From assembly GCF_900166595.1 (NCBI RefSeq), contig NZ_LT745763.1, positions 2,476,986 to 2,540,985 of the forward strand: DNA of 64,000 nucleotides. Direction: 5' to 3'. The DNA comes from Virgibacillus dokdonensis. Its GTDB lineage: Bacteria; Bacillota; Bacilli; Bacillales; Amphibacillaceae. This document shows, piece by piece, positions 27,552 through 47,864 of this stretch (the first letter of the stretch is position 1; each line of letters opens with the position of its first letter). The translations under genes were made by a program, and so were the position numbers. A model generated the notes under the pieces. It ran no database searches. It saw only the letters and a program-made list of their open reading frames with translations, and was not told the origin of the DNA.

Positions 27552-27707
27552 TCATCCATTTTTTGAAGGAGCCTATGTTTTTACTTGGCTATCGCCCAAG
27601 CTTTTATATTAAAAGCTTAAAACAATAAATCCAAAGATCTATACTTCATGTAGTACTAAAAAATTAGTATTTGTGAGCAAAATTTAAATTTTTATAACGA
27701 CACAGAA

Positions 27708-27754
27708 ATTACCGATACGGGTATATGTACAAAAAGTAATTTTTTTGGTATGAT
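27708..27754 (+). promoter_or_regulatory. Extended -10 promoter and candidate operator before cdr
   Basis: TGG-TATGAT at 27746-27754 is an extended -10. About 20 bases upstream, ATTACCGATACGGGTAT (27708-27724) has TACC and GGTA arms and the look of a CsoR/CstR-family operator, placed over the -35 region. Persulfide-responsive control is inferred from this pattern and the genes served, not shown. Confidence 0.45.
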
Positions 27755-27840
27755 TGCTTTAGACTTAAATGTTATCTAATTCACAAATAAAAGTAGTATT
27801 TGAATAATGCATTGTACTATGTGTAAAAAGGAGAATGAAC

Positions 27841-33937: not shown

Positions 33938-33948
33938 TTACTACCAAT

Positions 33949-34088
33949 TTACGGTTTGTATTTCTGCCCATACCATTCTGCCTCAGCAACTCCAAATTTC
34001 TGCCTAAATTTATCCATGTACTTGTATAAATAGTAACTTCTTATTGCGACACTGTTAAAATATAAAAATAATAAACATGCGAAACATA
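33949..34088 (-). pseudogene. C-terminal remnant of the LXG-associated membrane-protein family
   Basis: About 45 codons nearly identical to the C-terminus of the intact 274-aa paralog at 35516-36340 (CFACLLFLYFNSVAIRSYYL, then a K/R-rich RFRQKFGV tail ending in KYKP). The nucleotide match covers about 140 bases and ends abruptly at 34088 in GCGAAACATA; beyond that the frame has no resemblance. It has no start of its own, so it is a relic left by a deletion or recombination. Confidence 0.8.
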
Positions 34089-34207
34089 AATCGTCATAAA
34101 TAAAAGATAACCATAAAAACTTACGTTCGTTTCCCATGTTCAATTTTATAAATTATGTGATTTTTTAATAAAATAAAGTATAAAGTTTCTTCTCCTGCAC
34201 AAAGTTT

Positions 34208-34741
34208 CTATAATTCAATTTCTTTATTTTGAAACGCCCTTAAAACCTGCAATCTCCTAAATGGTCTATTTAAAAAAATCATAAATAATGGGATGCTCCC
34301 TAAAGATCCGATTATTAGAAATTGTATTTGGTTAAATATACAAAATAACGCAAAACCAATTACAACTACGAACAAACAAATTCCACCACCTAAATTCAAT
34401 TCAAGGTAATATTGTTCTTCACCTTTTCTAGCGTATTCTTTCATACTCTCTTGGTCTAAAAAAATGCCTTTCCCAGTGGTTTGAATATAGTAACGGCTAT
34501 ATAGATATTTGGCCACAAAGTAACAAACGAAGTTAGATATAATAAGTAAAATAATATTTAATAGAAATCCTTTATATGGCTGATAAATTTGGTTTAACAA
34601 TCCAGAACTATTAATAATTATTATAAACAGTAAAATGTATAAAAAAGAGGACTTCTCTCTATGTGCATACCTATAAAGTTTGTTCTGTTTACTATCATAA
34701 AACATTGTATAAATTTCTTTTTCTCTGTAGATCGGAATCAA
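34208..34741 (-). CDS. 177-aa membrane protein in the immunity-type array
   Basis: Unrecognised family. A TTG start at 34741 with AGGAGTG nine bases upstream is preferred to an ATG 29 codons earlier that lacks a ribosome binding site. The protein opens MIPIYREKEIYTMFYDSKQN, followed by three or four hydrophobic helices (SFLYILLFIIIINSSG; GFLLNIILLIISNFVCYFVA; GGICLFVVVIGFALF; FLIIGSLGSIPLFMIFL) and a basic end. The short N-terminal strand region and helix cluster recall the DUF443 type used as immunity to the T7SS toxin TspA in Staphylococcus, but that is only a likeness. It sits between an N-terminal and a C-terminal fragment of a different paralog. Confidence 0.65.
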   Translation of the reverse strand: MIPIYREKEIYTMFYDSKQNKLYRYAHREKSSFLYILLFIIIINSSGLLNQIYQPYKGFLLNIILLIISNFVCYFVAKYLYSRYYIQTTGKGIFLDQESMKEYARKGEEQYYLELNLGGGICLFVVVIGFALFCIFNQIQFLIIGSLGSIPLFMIFLNRPFRRLQVLRAFQNKEIEL

Positions 34742-34914
34742 CCTAATTCTCACTCCTATAACAACATGTATACGCCTATTATAGCGGTTTAAACAACGAC
34801 TGCTTAAAGCAGGTGGATTTATAAACATCGACGAATAAAGTCGTTTCCCAGACTATAATGCTGTTAAAAGACTTTAAGCTGAAGCATCCTCAAAGCTAGA
34901 ATAAATTCATTTTT

Positions 34915-35385
34915 CTACCCTAAATATTTCGTTCTTACTGCCTTATTGAAATAGTCTTTTAGCCTCTCATTTGATATATATTTCTTTTAAACTGTAAGCT
35001 GAATTTTCATGAATAAAAGTAGAAATATAGTCAAAAATGTATTGTATACAAAAAAACTTTTAATATTATCTTTCTTTCTATATACTAATGTACCAATCAC
35101 TACTGTTAGTATTAAAATAGACTGAATGTGCATATACCAGATATTATCAAATATAGTGATAAAATTTTTATTTTGATCTAATGGTATTGTAACTTGATTC
35201 ATAATATTACTTATATAGATACTAGCCCCATACAAAGCATATGAAGCTAATCCAATACAAAACACCATGAATATGAATGCCTTTAATAAATTAAATCCCT
35301 TAATCGTATTAATTGAATTCTTTGCAAAACTCTCACTAACAGTTTCTTCTACTTGAGAAAATGATCCATTAAATACGCTTTTCAT
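34915..35385 (-). pseudogene. Shortened paralog of the LXG-associated membrane protein, internal stop
   Basis: The first 132 codons match the N-terminus of the 274-aa paralog (MKSVFNGSFSQVEETVSESF against MKSIFTGSFSQVEEAISENF), including two membrane helices, and even the ribosome binding region is alike. The frame stops at a TAA (34987-34989), but the same frame continues for 23 codons (KKYISNERLKDYFNKA, then VRTKYLG) to a TAG at 34915, resembling the C-terminal tail of the family. The middle helices are missing. It may still yield a 132-aa product, but it is best read as a deleted, stop-interrupted copy. Confidence 0.65.
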
Positions 35386-35515
35386 CCTTTCACCCTTTTC
35401 ATAACCACCTAGGAAAACTTCCGATTAAAGAAAAATAAGGTGTAAACAGGTTTATTAGAAAAATACATGTATTGCAAAAGTTTATTACCATTCTCATTTT
35501 TAGTGTTCATGATAT

Positions 35516-36340
35516 TTAACCCTTATATTTTCCCCCATACCAATCTGCCTCTGTAACTCCAAATTTCTGCCTAAATCTCTCCGAGTACTTGTATAAATAG
35601 TAACTTCTTATTGCGACACTGTTAAAATATAAAAATAATAAACATGCGAAACATACAGCTAAAGGTGCAAAATCAATTAATGAACCAAATATTCTAGTTT
35701 CTAAATCATCTACTTCTGGAGAAATAACTTTTGTTAAATAATATAAAGCTCCGAATCCAAATAGTATACTTAACACATTTTTTCTATTTTTGCTTAGCCA
35801 CTCAACCAACGCTGTCCTTTTCTTTTTTGTACCATACACCATTTTCTTTGCATTTTGATAACTTTGATAAAAAACGAAAATAAAACTACATAAAAATAAT
35901 ACCGTATATAACATACGTAATGTATAGCTATTTACTATTAATTGGATAAATTTGAAGGCGAAAAGCAAAAATAGTAACCCACCAAGAGACAAAAAAAAGA
36001 TAAATAGAAAGTAACCTTTCGCATGATTTTTTTCTTTATATATAAAAGCTATCAATCCAGCAATAAAAAATATAAAAGCCTGGACATGTATATACCATAT
36101 ACTTGAAAATAAAGGGATAAATTCATTATTTTTATCAAATGATACTGCTAAATCATCTATATTGTTAGTAAAGAAAAAACTTACCCCGTAAACAACATAA
36201 GAACTACCTGAAAAAAATAATAAAAATATAATGAATTTATGCATTTTAAAATTTTTTATAGAGTTTATTGCCTCTTTCATAAAGTTCTCGCTAATTGCCT
36301 CTTCCACTTGAGAAAAAGACCCAGTAAATATGCTCTTCAT
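35516..36340 (-). CDS. 274-aa polytopic membrane protein, LXG-module paralog, candidate immunity protein
   Basis: Intact member of the local family. It starts MKSIFTGSFSQVEEAISENF, has six hydrophobic helices in two groups separated by a basic loop (YQNAKKMVYGTKKKRT) and ends in a charged tail after NSVAIRSYYLYKY. The last third resembles the 258-aa protein next to the toxin (ILFGFGALYYL against AIFGGLGAVYL; YSERFRQKF against CKKRFESFN), so the two appear distantly related. ATG at 36340 with AGGTGGAG upstream. A membrane location and multi-copy array next to a membrane-active LXG effector fit an immunity role. This is inference. Confidence 0.7.
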   Translation of the reverse strand: MKSIFTGSFSQVEEAISENFMKEAINSIKNFKMHKFIIFLLFFSGSSYVVYGVSFFFTNNIDDLAVSFDKNNEFIPLFSSIWYIHVQAFIFFIAGLIAFIYKEKNHAKGYFLFIFFLSLGGLLFLLFAFKFIQLIVNSYTLRMLYTVLFLCSFIFVFYQSYQNAKKMVYGTKKKRTALVEWLSKNRKNVLSILFGFGALYYLTKVISPEVDDLETRIFGSLIDFAPLAVCFACLLFLYFNSVAIRSYYLYKYSERFRQKFGVTEADWYGGKYKG

Positions 36341-36575
36341 CCTATCTCCACCTACTTACACAAAACTCACATTTTACATTTAAATTCATTTTAAATTTTT
36401 AATTATCTGTATCAGCATGTATAATGTGTTGTGCACTATACATGCGCATGAATAATTAATACTTCATATGGAGAGCCCCAGATCCAGCCGTCAAAAGCCT
36501 GCTATTTAGTGCTGGCTAACGTATCCAAACTATTACCTAAGAGTAATTCCTGTCTATCAATAATAGCTTAAATGC

Positions 36576-37190
36576 TTACTTTTCTATATCCATTTCAAAA
36601 TTAGCCATGTCTATATACACGTTATCTTTTGTTAAACGATTAAACATTTGCTCCTGTTGTGGAGTTACATCCAGCATAAATGGTATTGCGGTATCAGCAT
36701 GAAGGATGCCAAACTCTTCTTCAGTAAGCACTAACTCCATATTTTCAAATATGTATTCTCCATCTTGATTTCCAAATGTCATATCAAATTTGATATTCTT
36801 CATAGGATCTTTTAGTCGATTAATAGCCAGAAATAAAATAGATCGACTTCCATCAGGGTTAATTGAAATATCAAACGGATAGAGGCTAAAATCATTTGGA
36901 ACTCCCATTTTGGGATCTGCTTTAATTGCTTCATCTAAAACCGTATAGATTTCATTATTTTGAATTGTCATCCCCGCATCTTTGTCCTGTTTATGTAATT
37001 TCAATTGTAAGTCGTGCATTTGACCTCCAGCATGTTCACTTGTGTTTTGTTCATTTCCATTATCTGTTTTCGCCTGCGCTTCTGTATCTTCAGATTGCTT
37101 CTCACTGTCATCAATTTCCTTTGCATCATTACTACATGCAACCAATAAAAACAAAAGCGCAATCATGATTAGCATTAAAAACCTTTTCAT
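36576..37190 (-). CDS. Lipoprotein of the LXG module, 204 aa
   Basis: The signal peptide ends in the lipobox LLVACS, with C19 as the lipidated cysteine. An acidic Gln/Glu/Asp-rich linker of about 45 residues follows, then a folded domain of about 130 residues (NEIYTVLDEAIKADPKMG ... FSLYPFDISINPDGSRSILF ... NIKFDMTFGNQDGEYIFENM) with no recognised family. Outer-face anchoring is therefore predicted. ATG with GGGAGGGAG upstream. It follows the DUF5085-like pair by 30 bases and lies in the same orientation, so it may be a surface partner of the secretion module. Confidence 0.75.
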   Translation of the reverse strand: MKRFLMLIMIALLFLLVACSNDAKEIDDSEKQSEDTEAQAKTDNGNEQNTSEHAGGQMHDLQLKLHKQDKDAGMTIQNNEIYTVLDEAIKADPKMGVPNDFSLYPFDISINPDGSRSILFLAINRLKDPMKNIKFDMTFGNQDGEYIFENMELVLTEEEFGILHADTAIPFMLDVTPQQEQMFNRLTKDNVYIDMANFEMDIEK

Positions 37191-37222
37191 TATTCATTCT
37201 CCCTCCCCAATGGCTATTGCGT

Positions 37223-37669
37223 TTAAACTCCTACACTCATCTCCACATATCTTCTTCCCATATGGCTAGTCTTATACTCTACAAACACAGGGGTTTTCTG
37301 TTGCAATCCATTTTGTCTTATATAGTGCATTAGCTCCCAAAACTTCACTTGAGATGCTGCTTTAAAATCATCCATTAAGCGTGTCATTATCATTGGCTTG
37401 ACAGAAAAGTAACTATGAAAATATACTTGCTGCTCTTCATCCGAAATTGTAAAATTACTTTCAAGAATTGGCAAAAAAATTTCTGCCTGCATAACCTCAC
37501 TTGTTGGGTCGCTCAAAATAGTAAATAACATTCTACCATCTGGATGGTATCCTTCCTTTTCCAAAATAGATTGAAAATCTTTAATGGCTATATCAATTTC
37601 TTCCGGTACAAACTGATAATATTTTGAAACTACATTTGTATAAGCAATATGATGTTGTTCTACAATCAT
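37223..37669 (-). CDS. DUF5085-like protein, second of a pair
   Basis: Cytoplasmic protein of 148 residues with no signal or membrane helix. It resembles its neighbour (both have a central YxxxG ... FF or LFTI strand region followed by an F/YLPI segment), so the two are probably paralogs. Such proteins accompany LXG modules in Bacillaceae; the function is unknown, with chaperone or immunity roles possible. Its ATG overlaps the stop of the preceding gene by four bases, showing translational coupling. Confidence 0.65.
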   Translation of the reverse strand: MIVEQHHIAYTNVVSKYYQFVPEEIDIAIKDFQSILEKEGYHPDGRMLFTILSDPTSEVMQAEIFLPILESNFTISDEEQQVYFHSYFSVKPMIMTRLMDDFKAASQVKFWELMHYIRQNGLQQKTPVFVEYKTSHMGRRYVEMSVGV

Positions 37670-38133
37670 GACCCCTCACCTCTATGATTGAAAGGTACAT
37701 ATAGATCAATGATAAAATCATCATATACTTCCAACAGTACACAATAAAATGTAGCATCTATTGGTACATCATGAAGATGAGCATATTCTTGAATTCGCTG
37801 ATAAGCAGCATGGAAATCAGTTGCTTGATCCGCCTGGCGTAAAACTAAAGCGTCTTTAATATATAGTTTCTCTTGGAAATGAAAGTCGGTTTCATCTGAT
37901 AACTTAACAGGCTCGCTAATTGGCAAATAATATGTGAACTTACCAAATTTATCTTCGTTCTTTTCAGGAGAAACCGAAAAAAATATGGGACCATTTTGGT
38001 AAATACCTTCAGCAAGTATAAAATCTTCCATAATGAAAAAACCTTGTTGCCAATTTTTTCTTAACTGCCTTGTTTCATAGATTAATAAATTATCAAAAAT
38101 AAGTGAGCGAGTTTCAAATTGCAAATCAATCAT
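37666..38133 (-). CDS. DUF5085-like protein, first of a pair
   Basis: Cytoplasmic, 155 residues: MIDLQFETRSLIFDNLLIYE, then QGFFIMEDFILAEGIYQNGP, a YYLPISEPVKL strand and a C-terminal EVYDDFIIDLYVPF. It overlaps the end of the 258-aa membrane protein gene by eight bases, with GGGAGG inside that gene serving as ribosome binding site, and couples to the next gene by a four-base overlap. Placement directly after toxin and membrane protein suggests a helper or second immunity factor. Family assignment is from memory of the pattern. Confidence 0.65.
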   Translation of the reverse strand: MIDLQFETRSLIFDNLLIYETRQLRKNWQQGFFIMEDFILAEGIYQNGPIFFSVSPEKNEDKFGKFTYYLPISEPVKLSDETDFHFQEKLYIKDALVLRQADQATDFHAAYQRIQEYAHLHDVPIDATFYCVLLEVYDDFIIDLYVPFNHRGEGS

Positions 38134-38902
38134 CCTCCCTTTCCGATCCCATTGGCTTTAGATTCCCATCCTTATCAAAATTAAAACTTTCAAAACGTTT
38201 TTTGCAATAAAGAATAACTAATTGTTCAGGTAGCACAAAAAGCATGGTGTAAAATATTGCTAAACAAAGGATGCCTATAAATATATAATCGATGTGAATA
38301 AAATAAAAGTTTTTAGACAAAAATTGAATTAAATATACTGCTCCTAACCCACCAAATATTGCCAGAGGCATAAAAGATTTTTTTTCAAATCTCGCTCTTA
38401 TTTCACCTTTTTTAGAACCTTCTTTATAATGCCCTGCTCGTAATAATTTATAAAATCGCACGCAAGTAAAGACGAAAATCAATATTCCTAGTATAAGAGT
38501 GACAATGGTCGCCGTTAGCATAGACGCTGTTGTTGTGTCTACACTTCCTAGTATAAATATAGTAAATAGATATGCAAATACCCCAAAAAGATTTTGTGAC
38601 ACTAAAATAGTAACCAAATACTGTGTTTTCTCTCTTTTTTTATATATCTTTGAAAATGAATACATAATAGAGAATATGATTAAAACAATCGTAATTATTA
38701 AATGGATAGAAAAAATGTACTTTTTAAAAGGATAATAAGACTGATCTGCTACAACCACATACGTTACAATGAAAGTTAATACTTGCAAACAAGCAGCCAA
38801 AAGCAAGATTGCCCCTAAATTATTTGGCCCTTGCCTACCGGATTCTAAAGGCTTTCTTAACACAGCAAAATCTTCTTCTTGTAATTGATCTAATAATTTC
38901 AT
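38126..38902 (-). CDS. 258-aa polytopic membrane protein next to the LXG toxin, candidate cognate immunity protein
   Basis: Six hydrophobic helices: two (about 30-50 and 65-85), two (about 98-120 and 128-150), then two (about 177-198 and 205-228). A basic loop KEGSKKGEIRARFEKK lies before the last pair, and a hydrophilic C-terminus ends in SEREDD. ATG with GGGAGAGG upstream, 23 bases after the effector gene ends. First gene after an LXG effector is the usual immunity position. The effector's C-terminus looks membrane-inserting, for which a membrane immunity protein is expected. No catalytic motif was seen. Confidence 0.7.
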   Translation of the reverse strand: MKLLDQLQEEDFAVLRKPLESGRQGPNNLGAILLLAACLQVLTFIVTYVVVADQSYYPFKKYIFSIHLIITIVLIIFSIMYSFSKIYKKREKTQYLVTILVSQNLFGVFAYLFTIFILGSVDTTTASMLTATIVTLILGILIFVFTCVRFYKLLRAGHYKEGSKKGEIRARFEKKSFMPLAIFGGLGAVYLIQFLSKNFYFIHIDYIFIGILCLAIFYTMLFVLPEQLVILYCKKRFESFNFDKDGNLKPMGSEREDD

Positions 38903-38924
38903 TTACATTTCCTCTCCCTTGTTT

Positions 38925-40340
38925 CTAGCTGAACCAATCTTTTAATTTATGAAAAGCACCTTTCGCTCTATCCATTAAAGACTTATCACTTTTACCTAAT
39001 TTTTTATTCAATGCCCAGTTAAAAGCTATACCAAACCCAGCTCCAACTGCAGTTCCGACACCTGGAATTGGAATAAAGGCAGTCCCTGCAGCTGTAAAAC
39101 CAGCTTGCACAGCTCCGCTTATTGCAGTTTCAACTGTTGTGTCTACAGCAGCTCTAGAATATGCTTCTTCTCTTGTTAAACCATCTGCTCTAGCATCGTT
39201 ATAATTATTGTAATAGCTTAACCCTGCTCCAAGTGGTCCAAGCGCTTTTCCAGCAGTTCTTAAATGCCCATTCCCCAGTATATTTTTGGGATTTATACCA
39301 CTTATATTGTCTTTTGCTCCATGAACTGTTGATTTTCCAACAGCTTTAAATTTATCCCAATTTGTTGCCTTGTCATTGTAAGCTCTCATTTCGGGATATT
39401 CTTTAATTATATTTCTCCCCTCAGGAGACCATACTTGCTTTCCTGTTTTCTTATCATAATAATTTAAAGGAGTTTTTGCTCTTCCTGATTTGCCACTTTG
39501 GTATAGTGAATATTTTGCATGTTTATTCGGTTTTATACCTAATTCTTTTAAAGCTGCTTCGCTTGCATTAATACGATAAGTTATCCTTCCGTTTTTTTCA
39601 TATTTCGATACGCTTAACCCGTCATTTTCAGCTGCTCTAGCTATTGCTTTTGAAGAGGTATACCCAGATATTGAAGGGGCAAGATACGTACTGGTTAAAC
39701 TACTTAGCTTTTTAAAGTTTTCGTCGTTTTTATAATCACTAAACCTTTCTACACCTGCAGATCCTTTAACGGAGTTCATTGTCTTTTCAATATGTTCTAT
39801 TAAAGCCTTTGTTTGGGAATTGTGTGATTTTCCTTCATTGGTAAACGAATTAAAATTCTCTTCTAATTCAGTAATAGTCTCAACCACTTCTTTTTCATCC
39901 TGTACAATCGTATAAAAAGATGGAATACCTGCACTTGTAATGTCAGAAACATTGTGAATTGCTTTTTGAATACGATCATCTAAATCCCTCAACTTTTGAT
40001 AATCTATATTTATTTTGATTTGTTGATCGTTTAAGTAGTCACTTTGAATGATCGCATTCTCATGAGAATCTACATTTGAATGAAATGCTTCTAAATGATC
40101 TTTTAGATTGTGATTCAAGTCGGTAAACAATTCAGTAAGTGCTTCAATAATTCCATGCTTATGGAAGCTATCGAAATAACCTTTAGCGTTCTTTGCTGCC
40201 TTTCCAGAGAAAGTATCCATTCCAATAATTTGTTCGATATTAGTTGATATTTCTTTCAAACTTGATTTAATATGAGTAGATACCTTTTGGAAGTCACTAG
40301 AAAACTCGATAACCTCTGATATATCCACTTTATTCCCCAT
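38925..40340 (-). CDS. LXG-domain T7SS effector with glycine-zipper C-terminus
   Basis: Predicted secreted toxin of 471 residues. Residues 1 to about 200 form the helical LXG domain (VDISEVIEFSSDFQ at the start; FSGKAAKNAKGYFDSFH near 44-60). A middle region (about 240-330) contains KYSLYQSGKSGRAKTPLNYY and WSPEGRNII. The C-terminus (about 385-455) is a Gly/Ala-rich hydrophobic segment, SGAVQAGFTAAGTAF then IPIPGVGTAVGAGFGIAF, followed by a basic amphipathic end. No nuclease, ADP-ribosyl or NADase motif was seen. Glycine-zipper LXG toxins such as TelE and the T7SS toxin TspA depolarise membranes, so that is the inferred activity. ATG with AAAGGAGGG upstream. Confidence 0.85.
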   Translation of the reverse strand: MGNKVDISEVIEFSSDFQKVSTHIKSSLKEISTNIEQIIGMDTFSGKAAKNAKGYFDSFHKHGIIEALTELFTDLNHNLKDHLEAFHSNVDSHENAIIQSDYLNDQQIKINIDYQKLRDLDDRIQKAIHNVSDITSAGIPSFYTIVQDEKEVVETITELEENFNSFTNEGKSHNSQTKALIEHIEKTMNSVKGSAGVERFSDYKNDENFKKLSSLTSTYLAPSISGYTSSKAIARAAENDGLSVSKYEKNGRITYRINASEAALKELGIKPNKHAKYSLYQSGKSGRAKTPLNYYDKKTGKQVWSPEGRNIIKEYPEMRAYNDKATNWDKFKAVGKSTVHGAKDNISGINPKNILGNGHLRTAGKALGPLGAGLSYYNNYNDARADGLTREEAYSRAAVDTTVETAISGAVQAGFTAAGTAFIPIPGVGTAVGAGFGIAFNWALNKKLGKSDKSLMDRAKGAFHKLKDWFS

Positions 40341-40370
40341 CTAAACCCTCCTTTCGTTATAAATGTTCCA

Positions 40371-40661
40371 TCAGTCACTAGTTATCTTAGACGTTCCCTT
40401 ACTTAACTCTTCATCTTTTTCTTTCATACTTTCTCCTATATTTTTCAATGTGTCTATATCATTACTTAAAAGAGTTACGTATCTTTCCAGTATAGTCATT
40501 GCTTTAACCGCATTTTCCAAATCATTAGTAAACGGCGTAATATCCGTTTTATCAAAAGTCCAATTCTTATTAGTACTACTGTTTATATTGGAAACAGCAG
40601 CTTTTAACCTAGAAACATTCTCCCGAAAAACTTCTATGTTTATACCTACTTGCTCCCCCAT
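40371..40661 (-). CDS. YwqI-like (DUF5344) LXG-associated helical protein
   Basis: Small helical protein of 96 residues, MGEQVGINIEVFRENVSRLK onward, predicted as two helices of about 35 residues joined by a short WTFDKTDITPF turn. The size and the position between a YwqH-like gene and an LXG gene match the ywqH-ywqI-ywqJ order of Bacillus. Such partners bind the LXG domain and guide it to the secretion channel. ATG with AAAGGGAG eight bases upstream. Confidence 0.75.
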   Translation of the reverse strand: MGEQVGINIEVFRENVSRLKAAVSNINSSTNKNWTFDKTDITPFTNDLENAVKAMTILERYVTLLSNDIDTLKNIGESMKEKDEELSKGTSKITSD

Positions 40662-40666
40662 TTAAT

Positions 40667-41083
40667 CTACTCCCTTTCCTTTGCCCTTATTTGACTCTCC
40701 AGTGAATGGAGAGAGCTTTGCAGATTATTTAATCCTGCTGCATATGAAGCTTGATTGGCCTCATACCTTCTAATATCACTATCAATAGTCTCTTTTGCAT
40801 CCATCGATTTAGATAAATATTGCTGAATACTATCTCTATATAAGCTATACTTATTATCATACGTATCTTTATTATTTCCTCTCCATCTTCTGCCATCTTT
40901 CTCTAACTGATCAATGGATTTTTTAGTTGTTCTTAAATGTGTAATATTAGTTTCCAATGTATTAGAAGCTTCCTGTAACCTGCTAACCTTATCTTGCAAA
41001 ACTGATATTTCATTCCTTGCATTATTCATACCAAGTAACACAGTCCTTCTCTGCTCACGCAAAAGACTTAATGATGTGCTCAT
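40667..41083 (-). CDS. YwqH-like (DUF5082) LXG-associated helical protein
   Basis: 138 residues, almost entirely coiled-coil, with a WRG turn (DGRRWRGNNKDTYD, near 65-78) resembling the WXG motif of the ESAT-6 fold, and long helices either side. The family travels with LXG effectors and is thought to form a targeting complex with them. The gene starts 14 bases after essC and ends 5 bases before the YwqI-like start, so it is coupled to both. Confidence 0.75.
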   Translation of the reverse strand: MSTSLSLLREQRRTVLLGMNNARNEISVLQDKVSRLQEASNTLETNITHLRTTKKSIDQLEKDGRRWRGNNKDTYDNKYSLYRDSIQQYLSKSMDAKETIDSDIRRYEANQASYAAGLNNLQSSLHSLESQIRAKERE

Positions 41084-41096
41084 CCCTCACTCCCCC

Positions 41097-44000
41097 TTAT
41101 TCAGGTATTTTCAATTTTGTATGCTGATGATCCATTGCTAAATAACATTCAAATGGGTTTGGATATTTTTCCTGTCTAATAAATGGTTGCTTGAATATAT
41201 CCTGATCGCCAAGTCGCATACTCATCAATCCTACTATGGCTTGCGAACGTATATACTTAGCAACTTGTTCAAAGCTCAGTCCAATATAACTGTAATCCCC
41301 TATGAATATGAAATGGATGCCGGCCTTTTTGCCCTGTTCTATTAGAAGGGTTATTTCATCCACTTCTAATTGAGTACGATCACAAAAATCTTTTACATCG
41401 GCAATAAGAACAAGCCACCTAACATTCTCCCCCGTTGTCTGTTTAGTACGGATGTTAATTTCTGTCATAAGATCATTTTTCACAGAAATAACTCCTTCTT
41501 TTTCAGATATATATGCATGTAGGCTTTTTCCAATATCGGACAGTTGTTGTTCTGCCGTATCAATTAACATCGTTTGATAAAAACCAGAAAGAAGAGACAC
41601 ATTTTTTGCTAATGATTGACGTAATCTATCTAAACCATCTTGCCGGTCACTTACAACAGTTAAATGACCATGTTGGATTGGATCAAAAGCAAGTGGTTGT
41701 ACTTCCTCAAATTCCAATCCTAGGGGGACTTGCATTCCCTTTACAAGCTGTTTCGTCTTTCTATTGTTTTTAAACTTCTCAAAGTCAACCACTCCTTCAG
41801 GCATCATCGGAATTTCCTCTGGTAATTCACCATCCCAGAATGCTTCCATTTCTTTTGCAGTTGCTTGAATCGCATCAATAATTGCTAATGTCTCTTCACC
41901 TTCTGCAGGAAGCATGGTTTGGAATAATGCTGGTTCGTCCAGCTTAATCATCCCTCTTCCTGGTATTTCTTCAATTTCAATCTCTGTCCTACCGACAATT
42001 CCACGAGCCTCGGTTTCTTCAATTAAATAAAGTGGAATTTGAGTTTTAATATTCGACAATAACGGCATGCGCATGGCACTTTGTCGTCCGGCACTAATGG
42101 CTAGATGAATGCCAATACTTGCACCCTCTCTAGCAATTTGCGTAATTAGCTTTTCGAACTCATCAGAGAATGCTGCATCACGGACAGAATCATAGTTATC
42201 AATAACAATTAATTGATTTTCCACTATATCTCCGCTCGCTTTTTCATACATATCCATACTTGCAACGCCATAATTGCTTAACTTCTGTTTCCGTTCCTTG
42301 ATTTTACTGCTCATAAGACGGATGAATTTAGCTACTTTCTCTTCCTCATCCAGTAGCATCGTATCCGCAACATGTGGTAACGTTTTTAACGGTAATAAAC
42401 CATTGGTACCAAAATCTAGTAAGTACACATGTAAATGTTCGGGATGGTGCTGATGCACAAGATTCATAGTAACTGTTTGCAAGAACGTTGATTTTCCGTA
42501 GCCCGGGCTGGAAAAAACAGCAATATGTCCATGCTTCGTTAAATCAAGCGTAAGTGGCGATTGCGATTGCAATTCTGGCTGGTCTAGTAAACCTAATGTA
42601 ACAACTAGCGATTTCTTGCTTTCCTCTTGCCACACTTCTTTAAAATGAACATCATGTATTTCCTTTGGCAATATTCGTTCTGGTAACGGCGGAAGCCATG
42701 GTCTTGGAAGAGGATCAATTTGGCATTTTTCTGTGTAAGTAGCAATGTAATCAATCACCGCTTCCAATTCAGTTGGTTTTTTCTCCACATCTTGTTTATT
42801 GGCCAATCCACTTAAATCCTCGGTAAGAATATCATATTGACCTAAGTCATTAATCGCATAAACCGTTGTATCTATAAATTCATGATCTTCTTTATCTGGC
42901 ACGTAATCTGCGCCACTCCACGCACTTTGAAACAGTTCATAGATTTCATTGTTCCCAACTTGCAAGTACGCCCGTCCTGGTAACGTAATCTCCGCTGCAT
43001 CAGGTGTTTTCAATATTTCATTCGAATCACTCGCATTTTGTACTTTGAGCGCCAATTTAAATTTTGAGTTCGACCAAATTTGGTCATCGACAACTCCACT
43101 TGGCTTTTGTGTTGCAAGGATAAGATGGATACCAAGAGAACGCCCAATTCTCGCAGTGGATACAAGCTCTTTCATAAAATCTGGCTGTTCGGATTTCAGT
43201 TCTGCAAATTCGTCCGAAATCAAAAACAAGTGTGGCATCGCTTCGCTTGCTTTACCTTGCTTGTAAAGCTTCTGATATTGATTAATATGATTGACATTAT
43301 GCTCCCCAAATAGCCGTTGACGTTTTTGCAGCTCTGCTTTTATCGAAGCGAGCGCCCGCATTGATTGCGCTTTATCCAAATTCGTTATCGTTCCTAACAA
43401 ATGTGGCATGTCATGAAATAAATTTGCCATTCCACCGCCCTTATAATCTATGAGTAAAAAGGCAACTTCATAAGGATGAAAATTGATCCCTAAAGACAAA
43501 ATATAGGACTGAATAATTTCAGATTTCCCTGAACCAGTTGTACCAGCAACAAGACCATGTGGACCATGAGCCTTCTCATGTAAGTTTAATTGAACGATAT
43601 CTTCTTTACCCCGAAGACCTAATGGAACGGCTAAACTTTTATACGTTTCATTCACCTTCCAACGATGTTCAATATTTAAATCCGTTACATTTTCCACATC
43701 ATACATTTCTAGAAAAGTCACTTTTTCAGGTATAGAGTTTTTTAGATTTTGTAGATGATTGATCGGTGCCAAGGCACGGGTTATTTCTTCCTTATCAAAC
43801 CCTTCCGGATAATGATCCAGATGGAATTTTTTATTCACTAATTCTCCTTCTTCTAATAAAATGTTTCCATGCTTTGCATCACGAATGTCGATAACCGTTT
43901 TCACATGTTCTGGAAGTGCCTGCATGACATCTTGCACAAATACTAAGGATACACCAATTTCACTTAGATCTTCATTGAAAAATTCCATAATAATATGATC

Positions 44001-45551
44001 TAATATCATCTTCTCATCTGTAATAAGTACGATATAATGGGGAGAAAAATAAAGCTTTTCATTTTTGTTCGTTTTCTCTTCTATGGTTTGTCTACGTTCT
44101 TTTAATAATTGGTACAAGGAATACAACACTTGATCACGAGAACGTTCGTGATATATAAACCCGCGCACGTTAACATCTCTTAAACTAGCATGTGGTAGCC
44201 AGCGCATCCAATCCCATTCTTGCTTTTCTTCTTCTGGAAAAATTGTAATAAATTGCACGTCGTGATAACTATGAAATAATGCAAGTTGTGTAACTAATAA
44301 CTGCAACTGCTCTAACACAAGCGGACGATGACCGATATAGCCAACAGGTCCTTTGGTTAATGATGTAACAACGGGTACATTTTCAATTTCTTTATATTGA
44401 GATAAAAGCTCTCTTGCTTGATCTATAAGTTCATCCTTTTCTTGGGTAAATTCTTCATCATTAAAGTCAATTTTAAAGCTAGATGAAACCGTTCCTAAAC
44501 CCGCACGAAAATGCAGGAAATCATGCTGATACATGGTTTTTTCATAAATTCTTGCCTCCATATTTCTAACCATATCTCTAATCGTTACGATATCAGGATA
44601 ATGATAAAATAAAGCGTGGCGTTGCTCCTCACTTACTAAGTGCAGTTCTTTCGTTTTCCGTTGCAAATACGCTTTATATGTCTCTTCACGATGTTTCATA
44701 TCCGCTTTATATTTTTTAACACTTTTCACATAGGAAGTAATCGAAAATATTATCGTGACAATGGTAATCGATAGCATCACGATGATGTAAACCCCTCTAG
44801 GTTGAATTAGTGAAATAACAATCAGTGCTACAACCATTACTATTGGAGGTACGATCGTTCTTGCCAATTGTTCACTAGGCTTTGAAGGCTTATGTGCTGG
44901 TTTAGCAATCGTTCGATCTTCTTCAGGTTCCCGATAAATAATTCTAGGTGAACGATGATAATCTGGATACTCCCCGCTGTAAGGAGTAGTCACTTCTACC
45001 AATTCCACAAGCTTACTTGTAAAATCAAGATGTGATGTCATCACTTGTAATTCCTTTTCACCTACGCAAAACATCGTTCCAGCAACAAATAATTGGTCTC
45101 CAGGACATACGACTGCTTGCTTTTCAACAGCCTTAAAGTTATGAAAAATGGTTGCACCATTATTTTCTAGCTGAAAAGTAAACCCATTTTCCTGTCTGTG
45201 CAAGACGAAATCAACAGACGAATTAGGTAGCATAATATCGTCATATGAATGCGTGCCAACCGTTATTGTTTCTGCACCTGCAGCGTCATAGAATCTGGTT
45301 TCTTCCCTATGTAACAAATATAATTCCAACAGATGATCCGCTTCAGGGAGAGACAGTTGTTTTTCTAATTTCGCTTCCCCAATAAAAGCCTCGTTGCCAT
45401 TCCACATTAGTTTATGTGTTTGCTCTAAGTTGGAAAAAGTTATATTATCTGACCAGCTATTACCAATTATCATTTCCTTTTTTTCTTGATCTGGTAAATG
45501 GCATTTATGCAATTGATTATCATAAGTGACCATGAGTATTTTGTTTGCCAT
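41097..45551 (-). CDS. essC: T7SS motor ATPase EssC (YukBA type)
   Basis: Membrane-bound FtsK/SpoIIIE-type ATPase that drives export and selects substrates; 1484 residues, the usual length. The N-terminus holds two FHA-like domains (about 1-190), then two membrane helices near 225-265. ATPase domain 1 has an intact Walker A, GTTGSGKSE near 668. Domain 2 has SSPGYGKST near 1010. Domain 3 has a degenerate loop VVSDRQDGLDR near 1298, as in other EssC proteins. The C-terminal end, which determines effector specificity in Staphylococcus variants, directly precedes the effector module here. Confidence 0.95.
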   Translation of the reverse strand: MANKILMVTYDNQLHKCHLPDQEKKEMIIGNSWSDNITFSNLEQTHKLMWNGNEAFIGEAKLEKQLSLPEADHLLELYLLHREETRFYDAAGAETITVGTHSYDDIMLPNSSVDFVLHRQENGFTFQLENNGATIFHNFKAVEKQAVVCPGDQLFVAGTMFCVGEKELQVMTSHLDFTSKLVELVEVTTPYSGEYPDYHRSPRIIYREPEEDRTIAKPAHKPSKPSEQLARTIVPPIVMVVALIVISLIQPRGVYIIVMLSITIVTIIFSITSYVKSVKKYKADMKHREETYKAYLQRKTKELHLVSEEQRHALFYHYPDIVTIRDMVRNMEARIYEKTMYQHDFLHFRAGLGTVSSSFKIDFNDEEFTQEKDELIDQARELLSQYKEIENVPVVTSLTKGPVGYIGHRPLVLEQLQLLVTQLALFHSYHDVQFITIFPEEEKQEWDWMRWLPHASLRDVNVRGFIYHERSRDQVLYSLYQLLKERRQTIEEKTNKNEKLYFSPHYIVLITDEKMILDHIIMEFFNEDLSEIGVSLVFVQDVMQALPEHVKTVIDIRDAKHGNILLEEGELVNKKFHLDHYPEGFDKEEITRALAPINHLQNLKNSIPEKVTFLEMYDVENVTDLNIEHRWKVNETYKSLAVPLGLRGKEDIVQLNLHEKAHGPHGLVAGTTGSGKSEIIQSYILSLGINFHPYEVAFLLIDYKGGGMANLFHDMPHLLGTITNLDKAQSMRALASIKAELQKRQRLFGEHNVNHINQYQKLYKQGKASEAMPHLFLISDEFAELKSEQPDFMKELVSTARIGRSLGIHLILATQKPSGVVDDQIWSNSKFKLALKVQNASDSNEILKTPDAAEITLPGRAYLQVGNNEIYELFQSAWSGADYVPDKEDHEFIDTTVYAINDLGQYDILTEDLSGLANKQDVEKKPTELEAVIDYIATYTEKCQIDPLPRPWLPPLPERILPKEIHDVHFKEVWQEESKKSLVVTLGLLDQPELQSQSPLTLDLTKHGHIAVFSSPGYGKSTFLQTVTMNLVHQHHPEHLHVYLLDFGTNGLLPLKTLPHVADTMLLDEEEKVAKFIRLMSSKIKERKQKLSNYGVASMDMYEKASGDIVENQLIVIDNYDSVRDAAFSDEFEKLITQIAREGASIGIHLAISAGRQSAMRMPLLSNIKTQIPLYLIEETEARGIVGRTEIEIEEIPGRGMIKLDEPALFQTMLPAEGEETLAIIDAIQATAKEMEAFWDGELPEEIPMMPEGVVDFEKFKNNRKTKQLVKGMQVPLGLEFEEVQPLAFDPIQHGHLTVVSDRQDGLDRLRQSLAKNVSLLSGFYQTMLIDTAEQQLSDIGKSLHAYISEKEGVISVKNDLMTEINIRTKQTTGENVRWLVLIADVKDFCDRTQLEVDEITLLIEQGKKAGIHFIFIGDYSYIGLSFEQVAKYIRSQAIVGLMSMRLGDQDIFKQPFIRQEKYPNPFECYLAMDHQHTKLKIPE

Positions 45552-45715: not shown

Positions 45716-47005
45716 CTATTTTTCCTTTTCTTTATCACCACTATCTTCTTTCTTTTTATTGTCCTCATTTGATTGCGCTTCTTGTTCTGTTTGGTTAGTA
45801 TCTTCCGCCTCTGACTCACTTGCCGGTACTATTTCTTCATCCTCGTCTTGTAAATCAAACTCCTCACGGTACTGTTCTAATTCATCTTGTAACTTTTTAA
45901 CAGTCTTTTCTCTCTCTGATCCTGTTAAGTCTGGATTGTTTTTAGCTTCCTCTATCTTTTGAATAAGTCCGTGTATAATTAAGACAGGGTCATCAATGTA
46001 CTTGGCCTTTTCAAGCGATGTATCAAATTCTCCCCTGCCATTGTAAATCCAATAGGTTAAGTAATCAGGATCACTTTTCAAACTGACATTTTTTAAAATA
46101 ACTTCCTTCTCTGCATCAGGTAAGTTTTCCACGTTAATATAGGAATGAGCTAAAATATACATCGTTTGAATCGGTAGCTTTTCTGGATCTTCCCCCTCTA
46201 AAGTGGAAATAACATCGCCATAGGAAGAAGCCAAATACTCACCGTGAGCTTCTAATAGATTATCTTGGTAAGGTGCTTTTATAATGCCGTAATAAATGAC
46301 GGGAACGGTTAACAATACGGAAACGATAATCATAATAATGGAAAGTTGCTTAAATAAACGAAAGCGTTTCGTTGGTACAACTGTCATCGTTTGTTCTGTT
46401 TTGACTTGTTCTTCCTGATAACTTTTATACAATAAATCTTTGAGCTCTGCTAAGTCGGCTACTTCACTTACCTGTCGTTGAAATTCGGTTTCCGTTGCAT
46501 TTTGTAACGACCCATGATAAAGCTGATCAAAATTAAATTTTTTAGAGAATAAAGCGATCACATAGCATTTTAATTGTTTTAAAAAATCTGCTTCATCCCA
46601 TTCATAAGGTGGTACAAGCTTGCGAATCCCTCGATAGATAACAACAGGCATCAGATTATCATTAACCATCAGGTTATCAGGATGAAGAACAAAGGTTATC
46701 CTCGTGTTCAAAATAGGCTCTAATTGAAACATGTTGCACAGTAATCGTAATTTTTCATTTCTATGTAATTGCAGTAGTTGATCCCAGTTTTTCCATCTAG
46801 GCTCTAACTTAAATGTAAATTGAAATGCATCTTTTTCTTCCTCTATAGTGAGCGGGGCAAAAAAATCAGAAGGATGTAACATGATATCCATTTGGCGAAC
46901 ATCATGTACAGCGGTTTGTGATTTCGGTAAACGCATTTTCCAATTAGTTTGATCCATTTCAAATTGCAATGTGAGGTTTTCAAATTCGATTGTTTTTTCC
47001 TTCAT
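45716..47005 (-). CDS. essB: T7SS membrane protein EssB (YukC)
   Basis: Core membrane component, 429 residues. The N-terminal cytoplasmic pseudokinase-like domain (about 1-220) includes NDNLMPVVIYRGIRKLVPPY. A single membrane helix follows (LSIIMIIVSVLLTVPVIYYG, near 230-250). The outer domain starts with APYQDNLLEAHGEYLASSYG and is rich in helical repeats. The last 70 residues are a highly acidic Glu/Asp/Lys tail. It lies between esaB and essC in the standard order, all in one direction. Confidence 0.93.
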   Translation of the reverse strand: MKEKTIEFENLTLQFEMDQTNWKMRLPKSQTAVHDVRQMDIMLHPSDFFAPLTIEEEKDAFQFTFKLEPRWKNWDQLLQLHRNEKLRLLCNMFQLEPILNTRITFVLHPDNLMVNDNLMPVVIYRGIRKLVPPYEWDEADFLKQLKCYVIALFSKKFNFDQLYHGSLQNATETEFQRQVSEVADLAELKDLLYKSYQEEQVKTEQTMTVVPTKRFRLFKQLSIIMIIVSVLLTVPVIYYGIIKAPYQDNLLEAHGEYLASSYGDVISTLEGEDPEKLPIQTMYILAHSYINVENLPDAEKEVILKNVSLKSDPDYLTYWIYNGRGEFDTSLEKAKYIDDPVLIIHGLIQKIEEAKNNPDLTGSEREKTVKKLQDELEQYREEFDLQDEDEEIVPASESEAEDTNQTEQEAQSNEDNKKKEDSGDKEKEK

Positions 47006-47102: not shown

Positions 47103-47354
47103 TTATTGAACAACTAATATATCTCCATCTGTAACAGGGTAATTGACGATATAATCATCATCTGCAATGAACAGTTTCTTCGTGGTAACTTTGATGGCAT
47201 AGTAAGAATGCTCTGGTAGCGTAATATGTAGGGCATCTGTTACATAATAGAGTAATTGTTTTACCGTTAATTGTGTGGGGATACGGAGGTCGTAAACTCC
47301 GCATCCAATGTTGTTAAAATCCATTGTCACATTAATATGGGTATCTTGTGCCAT
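47103..47354 (-). CDS. esaB: Ubiquitin-like T7SS protein EsaB (YukD)
   Basis: 83-residue cytoplasmic protein with the beta-grasp pattern of YukD: THINVTMDFNNIGCGVYDLR, then IPTQLTVKQLLYYV and a closing DDYIVNYPVTDGDILVV. The family regulates or assembles the secretion machine. It ends 97 bases before essB and starts 12 bases after essA, inside the operon. Confidence 0.9.
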   Translation of the reverse strand: MAQDTHINVTMDFNNIGCGVYDLRIPTQLTVKQLLYYVTDALHITLPEHSYYAIKVTTKKLFIADDDYIVNYPVTDGDILVVQ

Positions 47355-47366: not shown

Positions 47367-47864
47367 CTAATTTAACATTTTTTGCATCATTACATAGATT
47401 CCACCACATAAAAGTAAAGCAAAACCTGTTAACACATATAACCATGTATTACTAGATTGGCTTGTCTCTGCTATCTGATCTTTATTCGGCTTCGAGGTAG
47501 ATGCGGCAATCTCTTCATAATCTTTCGTGAACAGGTCGTCTTTAACGGAATCCAATGTCTTATTTGTTTGCACATCCTTTGCAAAGAGATCTGACTCCAG
47601 TTCTTCTAAAGACTGCTGCTGCTCCGCTTTCTTTTCAGCAATGATTTTAGATGTTTCTTCTGTAAATAGTGTAGGGAAAATCTTTTCTAACTCTGTTTCC
47701 TGGTTAACTGTATTTTTCTTATCATCTTCCACAATACGGTCAATTTTCATTTCTAAGTCTCCATCACTATCGGCACTAGCCGCTGGTGTTTGGTATCCCC
47801 AAACAACCAGCACGCTAATAACAAGTGTGAGGGTCGCTTTAACTAGCCTCTGCTTCTTTTTCAT
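47367..47864 (-). CDS. essA: T7SS membrane protein EssA
   Basis: The ATG at 47864 has GGGG nine bases upstream; two earlier in-frame starts sit on or before that site. The product has a signal-like N-terminus (basic start, hydrophobic LVISVLVVWG, then ASADS), an acidic helical middle of about 90 residues (LEKIFPTLFTEETSKIIAEK; two related D-LF-KD motifs) and a C-terminal helix (TWLYVLTGFALLLCGGIYVM). This matches the EssA layout of 150-180 residues. It overlaps the 3' end of esaA by 26 bases. Confidence 0.85.
   Translation of the reverse strand: MKKKQRLVKATLTLVISVLVVWGYQTPAASADSDGDLEMKIDRIVEDDKKNTVNQETELEKIFPTLFTEETSKIIAEKKAEQQQSLEELESDLFAKDVQTNKTLDSVKDDLFTKDYEEIAASTSKPNKDQIAETSQSSNTWLYVLTGFALLLCGGIYVMMQKMLN

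What the first reader, a model, noticed from the sequence alone, without database searches (positions are those of the whole stretch)
33949..41083. LXG toxin module with glycine-zipper effector and a membrane immunity-type array
Directly after essC lies a full LXG module: two helical partner proteins, a 471-aa LXG effector, a 258-aa six-helix membrane protein, a DUF5085-like pair, a lipoprotein and several related membrane proteins. The effector has no enzymatic motif, but it has a Gly/Ala-rich hydrophobic C-terminus (SGAVQAGFTAAGTAF, PIPGVGTAVGAGFG). Known membrane-depolarising T7SS toxins (TspA, TelE) have such ends and are paired with membrane immunity proteins, TspA with a multi-copy family. 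The parallel is striking, but the membrane proteins here do not clearly belong to a described immunity family.
Basis: partly seen in the sequence, partly recalled or inferred. Interest (0 to 1): 0.78.

Follow-up and report, generated by a model that had tools for sequence, protein, structure and literature searches.

The report
EsxX-like toxin with unfamiliar membrane antidote
A Bacillus relative carries, next to its type VII secretion genes, a probable membrane-puncturing weapon with two likely antidotes: one of a known kind for inside the cell, and one membrane protein of an undescribed family that probably guards against attack from outside.

Summary
The module is real and complete. After essC lie two LXG partners, a 471-aa LXG effector, a 258-aa six-helix membrane protein, a DUF5085 pair, a lipoprotein, an intact 274-aa membrane protein, two remnants of that family and an unrelated 206-aa membrane protein. 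The order resembles the S. aureus EsxX locus published in October 2025 (lap pair, toxin, ExiC, ExiA-ExiB, ExiD). The toxin-domain profile hits frames beside DUF5079 (ExiC family) in 2 of 12 Staphylococcus-like genomes, and the two DUF5085 genes match the pair there in order. The 258-aa family shows no detectable relation to DUF5079, DUF5080, DUF443 or the 274-aa family, yet is the next gene after the toxin in 43 of 44 public loci; the other contig ends. Nine of nine genomes with the toxin have both DUF5085 genes whole; five of five with the 258-aa gene but no cognate toxin found do not, while four of the five keep a whole 258-aa gene. Best reading: an EsxX/TelE-type zipper toxin, DUF5085 as the cytoplasmic antidote, and the 258-aa protein as a lineage-specific surface immunity protein, beside an island of orphan immunity genes. 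Nothing was tested at the bench; no structure could be predicted.

The parts
40667..41083 (-). 138-aa YwqH-like/DUF5082 protein (LapX4/LapA4 type), LXG partner
   Evidence: PF16888 E 3e-21
40371..40661 (-). 96-aa TIGR04197/DUF5344-type helical protein (LapX3/LapA3 type), LXG partner
   Evidence: TIGR04197 41.9 bits, cut-off 26; DUF5344 22.6 bits, below cut-off 27
38925..40340 (-). 471-aa LXG effector; LXG residues 5-193, toxin domain about 220-471
   Evidence: PF04740 E 2.8e-23; PF26953 precomputed on 78 of 81 hits of the C-terminal search; toxin-domain profile A4
39030..39056 (-). glycine zipper GxxxGxxxG, residues 429-437 of the effector
   Evidence: motif scan; G429 and G433 in 53 of 53 and G437 in 52 of 53 aligned effectors
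38126..38902 (-). 258-aa six-helix membrane protein; proposed surface immunity protein
   Evidence: six hydrophobic segments; no Pfam or NCBIfam family for this protein and no family shared by many of 60 relatives; next labelled gene in 43 of 44 loci
37666..38133 (-). 155-aa first DUF5085 protein, ExiA-like
   Evidence: PF16895 22.7 bits, below cut-off 30; profile of such first genes: hhalign 98.2% with the first DUF5085 genes of Staphylococcus-like loci
37223..37669 (-). 148-aa second DUF5085 protein, ExiB/TipE-like; proposed cytoplasmic antidote
   Evidence: PF16895 46.7 bits; profile of such second genes: hhalign 97.4% with the second DUF5085 genes of Staphylococcus-like loci
36576..37190 (-). 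204-aa lipoprotein, role unknown
   Evidence: N-terminal hydrophobic segment, lipobox read from the sequence; a relative lies within 6 kb of the toxin in 11 of 44 loci
35516..36340 (-). 274-aa polytopic membrane protein, intact; probable orphan immunity protein
   Evidence: 14 database hits, the named ones all Virgibacillus; matches in 4 of 8 genus genomes
34987..35385 (-). remnant: 5' part of a 274-aa family gene (132-aa frame)
   Evidence: family HMM positions 1-129
34208..34828 (-). 206-aa membrane protein (four hydrophobic segments); probable orphan immunity for another LXG toxin
   Evidence: segments; relatives directly follow a different LXG gene in L143 and L039
33949..34143 (-). remnant: 3' end of a 274-aa family gene (64-aa frame)
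   Evidence: 89% DNA identity of 33947-34088 to 35514-35655; HMM positions 225-274
41097..45551 (-). EssC-type T7SS ATPase, 1484 aa
   Evidence: PF01580 E 4.6e-58
45716..47005 (-). EssB/YukC
   Evidence: PF10140 E 1.6e-118
47103..47354 (-). EsaB/YukD
   Evidence: PF08817 E 2.2e-9
47367..47903 (-). EssA
   Evidence: PF10661 E 8.9e-21

Best explanation
This is an EsxX/TelE-type antibacterial module of the type VIIb secretion system. The two small helical proteins bind the LXG domain and target the 471-aa effector to EssC (inferred). In the producing cell the effector's glycine-zipper domain is held by the DUF5085 pair, with the second protein (148 aa) as the binding subunit like ExiB/TipE (inferred from orthology). 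On secretion the pair is stripped off, and the zipper domain inserts into the membrane of neighbouring cells and depolarises it (inferred from EsxX/TelE). Producers and resistant neighbours survive because the 258-aa six-helix protein, in the gene position of ExiC but of a family with no detectable relation to it, blocks the toxin from the outer face of the membrane (inferred). The genes downstream are an island of immunity genes against other LXG toxins, with remnants and exchange between copies (inferred from related loci).
For: Gene order resembles that of the EsxX locus (PMC12744356). The toxin-domain profile without LXG hits frames of 579 and 578 aa in 2 of 12 Staphylococcus-like genomes (E 8.4e-8 and 4.3e-6), each directly upstream of DUF5079, then two DUF5085 genes, then DUF5080. 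DUF5085 profiles match in order: first-first 98.2%, second-second 97.4%, crosses 36.6% and 1.0%. GxxxGxxx[GSTA] is at the site in 52 of 53 effectors. The 258-aa family is the next labelled gene in 43 of 44 loci; of 40 loci with a full toxin frame 38 have both DUF5085 genes whole, and the two exceptions end 1,060 and 100 bases after the toxin. By genome: toxin-positive, whole DUF5085 pair in 9 of 9; 258-aa gene but no cognate toxin found, 0 of 5, with a whole 258-aa frame in 4 of these 5. The toxin domain varies with the 258-aa protein beyond shared ancestry (partial rank correlation 0.40; with the second DUF5085 -0.08; 38 of 44 loci; no significance test). In two congeners the 258-aa protein is 49-53% identical to the window's while the DUF5085 pair is 87-99% identical.
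Against: No activity was measured, and no structure could be predicted. The 258-aa family shows no homology to ExiC or ExiD. In TelE's locus the six-pass protein right after the toxin did not protect E. coli from TelE, so position alone does not prove immunity. ExiC needs ExiD; no second polytopic protein is regular here. The FxxxD motif described for LapX3 is in 0 of 44 C-terminal halves here. Window and G007 toxins are 83% identical but their 258-aa proteins only 53%, a loose fit with one-to-one specificity; and the 258-aa protein's highest partial correlation is with the second DUF5085 protein (0.54), not with the toxin. Four loci have a broken or cut-down toxin frame; two of them (L064, L069) still have a whole DUF5085 pair. 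Four Staphylococcus-like genomes have DUF5085 genes without a toxin-profile match, and four other genomes have weak toxin-profile matches with neither DUF5085 nor the 258-aa family (G126, G251, G291, G428). The genome table rests on 14 related genomes chosen for carrying the 258-aa gene.
Confidence: 0.77

Rival explanations
1. The 258-aa protein is not immunity but a membrane factor for assembly or export of this effector class.
For: It is next to the effector in 43 of 44 loci, as an export partner would be; the equivalent gene next to telE did not protect E. coli.
Against: It persists without a cognate toxin found in 4 of 5 genomes, is repeated up to six labelled copies in one locus and is exchanged on its own between relatives. 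An export partner would need none of these.
Confidence: 0.12
2. The DUF5085 pair is the whole immunity system; the 258-aa protein and the rest are passengers of an immunity island.
For: TipE alone, though only partly, rescues E. coli from TelE; ExiB alone suffices against cytoplasmic EsxX.
Against: ExiAB did not protect against EsxX sent outside, and the fixed 258-aa position in 43 of 44 loci is not passenger behaviour.
Confidence: 0.05
3. The 274-aa protein is the ExiD counterpart and works together with the 258-aa protein.
For: It lies after the DUF5085 pair and lipoprotein, about where exiD lies, and has several membrane segments.
Against: Found near the toxin in 1 of 44 loci; broken in G007 and absent in G002 beside intact toxins; six full-length copies and a split one in G001, which has a different toxin at the site; no homology to DUF5080 by hhalign (1.42%).
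Confidence: 0.12
4. The C-terminus is an enzyme, for example a lipase or nuclease, and the hydrophobic stretch only a translocation aid.
For: About 200 residues before the zipper are conserved and include polar residues such as invariant N379 and nearly invariant R396 and D400.
Against: No enzymatic family in Pfam or NCBIfam, and the domain is homologous to frames in EsxX-type loci. No solved structure matched the domain at E up to 1, which is neutral.
Confidence: 0.06

Closest known systems
EsxX-ExiAB-ExiCD, Staphylococcus aureus ST398 (PMC12744356; parts 1-3 of 7 read: summary, introduction, results, discussion and part of the methods; passages of the rest)
   Same: LXG toxin with glycine zipper; DUF5082/DUF5344 partners; six-helix protein directly after the toxin; DUF5085 pair matching in order; toxin domain homologous to frames in DUF5079 loci.
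   Different: The membrane proteins are not detectably DUF5079/DUF5080; a second polytopic partner is not regular; the two partner genes stand in the opposite order; a lipoprotein is inserted; LapX3's FxxxD is not found. EsxX itself was not compared by sequence.
TelE-TipE, Streptococcus gallolyticus (PMC10434224; passages read)
   Same: LXG, C-terminal glycine zipper, DUF5085 immunity, six-pass protein directly after the toxin.
   Different: No sequence of TelE or of the six-pass protein was compared here; in that paper only one of two DUF5085 proteins was active.
TspA-TsaI (DUF443), Staphylococcus aureus (PMC7456083; search listing, and passages in PMC12744356 and PMC10434224)
   Same: Membrane-depolarising LXG toxin with a polytopic membrane immunity protein in multiple copies.
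   Different: TspA is toxic only from outside (PMC12744356); that it lacks a DUF5085 pair is recalled. The 258-aa and 274-aa families are not detectably DUF443.
TslA-TilA lipoprotein immunity (PMC10730906; passages read)
   Same: A lipoprotein near a T7SS toxin can be an extracellular immunity factor.
   Different: The effector here has the usual domain order; the 204-aa lipoprotein has no Pfam match with E under 0.01 and no NCBIfam match at its cut-off.

Membership tests
EsxX/TelE-type LXG toxin | N-terminal LXG domain | tested here: met
   PF04740 E 2.8e-23
EsxX/TelE-type LXG toxin | C-terminal glycine zipper | tested here: met
   Residues 429-437; 52 of 53 aligned effectors
EsxX/TelE-type LXG toxin | toxin domain homologous to the effector of EsxX-type loci | tested here: met
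   E 8.4e-8 and 4.3e-6 in 2 of 12 DUF5079-bearing genomes, each directly upstream of DUF5079; not compared with EsxX itself, and the LXG part of those frames was not looked at
EsxX/TelE-type LXG toxin | DUF5344 and DUF5082 partner genes beside the toxin | tested here: met
   PF16888 above cut-off; TIGR04197 above, DUF5344 below cut-off
EsxX/TelE-type LXG toxin | FxxxD motif on the C-terminal arm of the LapX3-type partner | tested here: not met
   0 of 44 C-terminal halves, 1 of 44 anywhere, by simple pattern
EsxX/TelE-type LXG toxin | membrane depolarisation from both faces | not testable with these tools
   needs expression
ExiAB (DUF5085 cytoplasmic antidote) | two consecutive DUF5085 genes matching ExiA-type then ExiB-type | tested here: met
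   the first protein is below the Pfam cut-off; compared with five Staphylococcus-like loci, two of which have the toxin match
ExiAB (DUF5085 cytoplasmic antidote) | gene pair tracks with the toxin | tested here: met
   Whole pair in 9 of 9 toxin-positive and 0 of 5 toxin-negative genomes; among four loci with a broken or cut-down toxin, two keep it
ExiAB (DUF5085 cytoplasmic antidote) | hydrophobic groove on the second protein binds the zipper | not testable with these tools
   structure prediction switched off
ExiC/ExiD (DUF5079/DUF5080) | sequence homology of the 258-aa protein | tested here: not met
   hhalign probability 0.40% and 2.10%, scores 17.8 and 23.1, against reversed-profile scores up to 23.2; neither family among the 25 of 27 families shown for 60 members
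ExiC/ExiD (DUF5079/DUF5080) | both membrane proteins needed together | tested here: inconclusive
   Only gene content tested: 12 of 41 loci have a protein with 4 or more segments among the next two genes
TsaI (DUF443) | sequence homology of the 258-aa or 274-aa protein | tested here: not met
   hhalign 0.35% and 0.23%; no DUF443 match in G000, G002, G004 or G029

The most novel reading that the evidence does not exclude
The outward-facing immunity of one toxin class has been replaced by unrelated membrane proteins in different lineages, while the toxin domain and its cytoplasmic antidote stayed orthologous. In Bacillaceae and relatives a single-component family of at least 163 proteins, none of the 120 listed with a Pfam domain, fills the place of the two-component ExiCD. 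It is swapped as a cassette with the toxin, or alone, through a conserved block at its 3' end.
Probability: 0.55. Interest if true: 0.62.

Novelty: new variant of a known kind. Interest (0 to 1): 0.5.

Why it matters
PMC12744356 states that ExiCD homologues are encoded only within the Staphylococcaceae. If the reading is right, the same toxin class is spread over many Bacillaceae and relatives with another surface immunity family, so recognition of one pore-forming domain by unrelated membrane proteins can be compared directly. It also supplies a natural experiment in which the cytoplasmic antidote disappears with the toxin while the surface antidote stays, and it gives a likely function to a membrane protein family without a Pfam domain, named 'ABC transporter ATPase' in some records.

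Tried and rejected
DUF443 (TsaI), DUF5079 (ExiC) and DUF5080 (ExiD) as homes for the 258-aa and 274-aa families: not supported by profile-profile comparison. The three profiles were small and from one genus: 14 sequences of 22 DUF5079 loci, 10 of 11 DUF5080 loci, 12 of 19 DUF443 loci (frames of 195 aa or more, duplicates dropped). Reversed profiles as null were run for the 258-aa family only. The positive controls were a divergent 258-aa pair (98.2%, but found with the same profile) and the two DUF5085 groups (56.6%). Structural relation is not excluded.

The idea that extra 258-aa copies arrived with toxin tails: of 104 copies with an N-terminal part in 57 loci, 53 follow a full toxin domain, 4 a toxin tail (3 of them in L147) and 47 neither. 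Four pairs of these loci are the same place fetched twice, judged from equal contig lengths (L026/L146, L032/L155, L039/L156, L059/L151), so the counts are inflated. Most extra copies look like plain duplicates.

The 274-aa protein as an ExiD counterpart: considered and put second. PDB relatives of the DUF5085 proteins: two weak matches (E 0.24 and 0.81) for one, none for the other. The effector profile matched only the LXG part of 8gmh with confidence. The name of PF26953 could not be learnt: it is not in the local library. In one search the single profile first built for the first DUF5085 gene had absorbed both kinds (114 frames) and hit all ten Staphylococcus-like proteins, three second genes best; the order test therefore rests on the two separate alignments (43 and 41 sequences). 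Rows dropped before counts: L034 from A4 (stop in the frame of my coordinates); 6 of 44 loci from the correlation; G018, G156 and G191 from the toxin/antidote table, as their 258-aa matches are weak (20-61 bits).


Full report
What is there. On the minus strand, 13 bases after the essC-type gene (41097-45551), run a YwqH-like/DUF5082 protein, a TIGR04197/DUF5344-type protein, a 471-aa LXG effector, a 258-aa six-segment membrane protein, two DUF5085 proteins, a 204-aa lipoprotein, an intact 274-aa membrane protein, a remnant of the same family, a 206-aa membrane protein and a second remnant. EssB, EsaB and EssA lie upstream by Pfam; the 1177-aa gene beyond gave no Pfam match at 1e-5, so calling it EsaA is recall. 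The genome has one further LXG gene elsewhere. The host looks like a Virgibacillus, judged from named relatives of its proteins; no call names it.

What it matches. The most informative paper is PMC12744356 (Alcock and others, Cell Reports, October 2025; outline and parts 1-3 of 7 read; passages). In the S. aureus ST398 locus the order is lapX3 (DUF5344), lapX4 (DUF5082), esxX, exiC (six helices, DUF5079), exiA-exiB (DUF5085 pair), exiD (six helices, DUF5080). EsxX depolarises membranes and is toxic from both sides. ExiB holds its glycine zipper in the cytoplasm; ExiC and ExiD together protect against the exported toxin. TelE of Streptococcus gallolyticus (PMC10434224, passages) has a zipper and a DUF5085 immunity protein, TipE, and the six-pass gene next to telE did not protect E. 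coli. The window has the same order, except that the two small partner genes are in the opposite order and a lipoprotein stands before the last membrane gene.

Tests of the toxin. A profile of the C-terminal domain alone (A4, 12 sequences, no LXG) was searched in the 12 genomes that carry DUF5079, all of one genus. It hit 2 of 12, at E 8.4e-8 and 4.3e-6, in frames of 579 and 578 aa. Both lie directly upstream of a DUF5079 gene, followed by two DUF5085 genes and DUF5080. The LXG part of these frames was not examined. The other 10 of 12 had no match at E 0.1; four of these ten (G195, G266, G275, G388) nevertheless have DUF5085 genes. In 398 genomes of the class the profile matched 10: four strongly (G000, G202, G399, G418), G291 at 1.7e-14, and G174, G293, G126, G428 and G251 between 8.4e-8 and 5.5e-4. 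G126, G251, G291 and G428 have neither the 258-aa family nor DUF5085, so the domain, or its zipper part, also occurs in other settings. The zipper GxxxGxxxG is at residues 429-437; G429 and G433 are in 53 of 53 effectors, G437 in 52 of 53. The EsxX zipper peptide printed in the paper has the same kind of run, by eye. No enzyme family was found. PF26953, a newer Pfam family, is recorded on 78 of 81 hits, but its name is not held here.

Tests of the DUF5085 pair. Alignments of the first and of the second gene from Bacillaceae loci (43 and 41 sequences) were compared with the first and second genes of five Staphylococcus-like loci: first-first 98.2%, second-second 97.4%, first-second 36.6%, second-first 1.0%. 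So the 155-aa protein is ExiA-like and the 148-aa protein ExiB/TipE-like.

Tests of the 258-aa protein. It has 163 relatives at E 1e-3, and none of the 120 listed has a Pfam domain. The two known surface-immunity families and DUF443 are not detectable relatives: hhalign probabilities 0.40% (DUF5079), 2.10% (DUF5080) and 0.35% (DUF443), with scores inside the range of reversed profiles; a divergent 258-aa pair gave 98.2%. DUF5079 matches 12 of 398 sampled genomes of the class, all one genus. The 258-aa family matches 8 of 398: six strongly, G156 at 54 bits, and G191 at 20 bits with six stops, probably spurious.

Context. A scan of genome contigs with the effector alignment gave 44 loci. The next labelled gene after the toxin is the 258-aa family in 43 of 44; in L057 the contig ends 100 bases after the toxin. 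Within 6 kb of the toxin, both DUF5085 genes are labelled in 41 of 44, the TIGR04197-type partner in 42, the YwqH-like one in 34, the lipoprotein in 11 and the 274-aa family in 1. A recount by frame length: 40 of 44 have a toxin frame of 400 aa or more, and 38 of these 40 have both DUF5085 genes in frames of 130 aa or more; the two others (L036, L057) end 1,060 and 100 bases after the toxin. Of the four loci with a broken or cut-down toxin frame, L043 lacks the second DUF5085 gene and L065 has it split, but L064 and L069 have both whole. In the class sample, all 4 genomes with a strong toxin match have the 258-aa gene adjacent.

Natural experiment. Seventeen genomes had a 258-aa match; G018, G156 and G191 were set aside as weak. 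Of the 14 others, nine have the cognate toxin (G000, G002, G007, G011, G020, G029, G202, G418, G399), and all nine have both DUF5085 genes in open frames of about full length. Five have no cognate toxin found (G001, G004, G019, G258, G160). In G001 the first DUF5085 gene is split over two frames; in G004 only pieces of the second remain; in G019, G258 and G160 no DUF5085 match exists in the genome. Four of these five keep a 258-aa frame of 257-267 aa; G004 does not. (For G160 and G258 one search counts one and two stops inside the match; by coordinates they fall at its C-terminal end.) Toxin absence was tested genome-wide for G258 and G160, but only in stretches of 16-18 kb for G001, G004 and G019. 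G001, G019 and G160 have another LXG gene near; that of G160 shows a local match of the full effector profile in the zipper region. This is what the compartment model predicts: the cytoplasmic antidote is needed only by producers, the surface antidote by anyone attacked. The genomes are related, few and chosen by the 258-aa gene, so this is support, not proof.

Exchange. Against G001, EssC is 99% identical, the DUF5085 proteins 98-99% (over 131 and 148 residues) and the lipoprotein 97.5%, but the partner proteins, LXG and 258-aa proteins only 41-49%. At the DNA level identity rises from about 53-62% to 88-100% in the last sixth of the 258-aa gene and stays high beyond. So the partner-toxin-258 cassette was replaced between essC and the conserved 3' end of the 258-aa gene. 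Against G007 the sharp drop is in the 258-aa gene (53% protein identity, between a toxin of 83% and a DUF5085 protein of 88%); the YwqH-like partner (69%) and the lipoprotein (75%) are also lower than average. A V. dokdonensis relative (P0123) is identical to the window's effector over residues 1-300 and then 30-71% identical per 30-residue block. The toxin domain and the 258-aa protein vary together (partial rank correlation 0.40 in 38 of 44 loci; toxin with first and second DUF5085 0.22 and -0.08), but the 258-aa protein's highest partial value is with the second DUF5085 protein (0.54); no significance test was done. Against strict pairing: toxins 83% identical carry 258-aa proteins only 53% identical.

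The downstream array. The 274-aa family has 14 database hits, Virgibacillus wherever a source gives a name, and matches in 4 of 8 genus genomes; G001 has six full-length copies and a split one. It is broken in G007 and absent in G002, both with an intact toxin. Members look like mosaics: P0203 is 99% identical to the window's protein in the first part and 72% in the last, which recalls the exchange described for tandem T7SS immunity genes (PMC9484751, abstract). The 206-aa family directly follows another LXG gene, with its own glycine-rich end, and then comes a DUF4176 gene, in L143 and L039. In the other four of the five of 44 loci that have it (L028, L030, L034, L065) no LXG gene stands directly before it. 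The stretch 33949-36340 is therefore best read as an immunity island against other toxins; for the 274-aa family no toxin was found. The 204-aa lipoprotein remains unexplained; TilA (PMC10730906, passages) shows that a lipoprotein can be T7SS immunity.

Difference from EsxX. ExiC works only with ExiD. Of 41 loci with a second DUF5085 gene, 12 have a protein with four or more hydrophobic segments among the next two genes; four of the twelve are 258-aa copies and four form a small family of 208-251 aa (L041, L045, L046, L050) that could be a second partner there (four of the 41 have under 2 kb left). 24 of 44 loci have a single labelled 258-aa gene. So the 258-aa family may act alone or as homomers; this is inferred. 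LapX3's FxxxD is not seen.

Literature. Searches for LXG with glycine zipper (11 papers), DUF5085 (5 papers), LXG with depolarisation (20 of 4,715 listed), Virgibacillus with type VII secretion (no paper), EsxX/ExiC (20 of 255 listed) and LXG with four Bacillaceae genera (10 of 220 listed) showed no title on such a system in those genera or on the 258-aa family. Only this open-licence library was searched.

Verdict. Interest 0.5.

Noticed in passing
L143:13152-15450 (minus) and L039:13939-16172: A second LXG module: a 451-466-aa effector with a long glycine-rich C-terminus (by eye), a 206-aa-family membrane protein and a DUF4176 protein (PF13780); probably another zipper toxin with its own undescribed immunity protein.
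   Followed up: partly
window 38925-40340 (effector residues 400-464): Weak match to PADLOC's phage-defence candidate PDC-M09B (E 3.6e-6), which hints that similar zipper domains may be used in defence.
   Followed up: no
L147 (G399) 7664-9365 and 16951-17305: Pieces of the toxin domain stand just upstream of three 258-aa copies or fragments, a pattern of displaced toxin tails with their immunity genes.
   Followed up: partly
L144 (G004) 10396-15877: At the same site a congener has an EssC with a different C-terminus (by eye), followed by a DUF4176-like gene (by eye), small proteins and a 476-aa protein without a Pfam match at 0.01, like the essC variants of S. aureus.
   Followed up: no
G000:C15:1682411-1683010: Second LXG gene of the genome, 307-aa frame, E 7.5e-62 to PF04740, far from the T7SS locus.
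   Followed up: no
window 24333-25943: 536-aa DDE transposase gene (PF13751, PF05598) about 8 kb from the island.
   Followed up: partly
window 26247-29535: Sulphur transport protein (PF04143) followed by a pyridine-nucleotide oxidoreductase with a rhodanese domain; CoA-disulfide reductase type is recall.
   Followed up: no
window 5352-5480: PyrR binding site RNA (RF00515, 57.5 bits).
   Followed up: no
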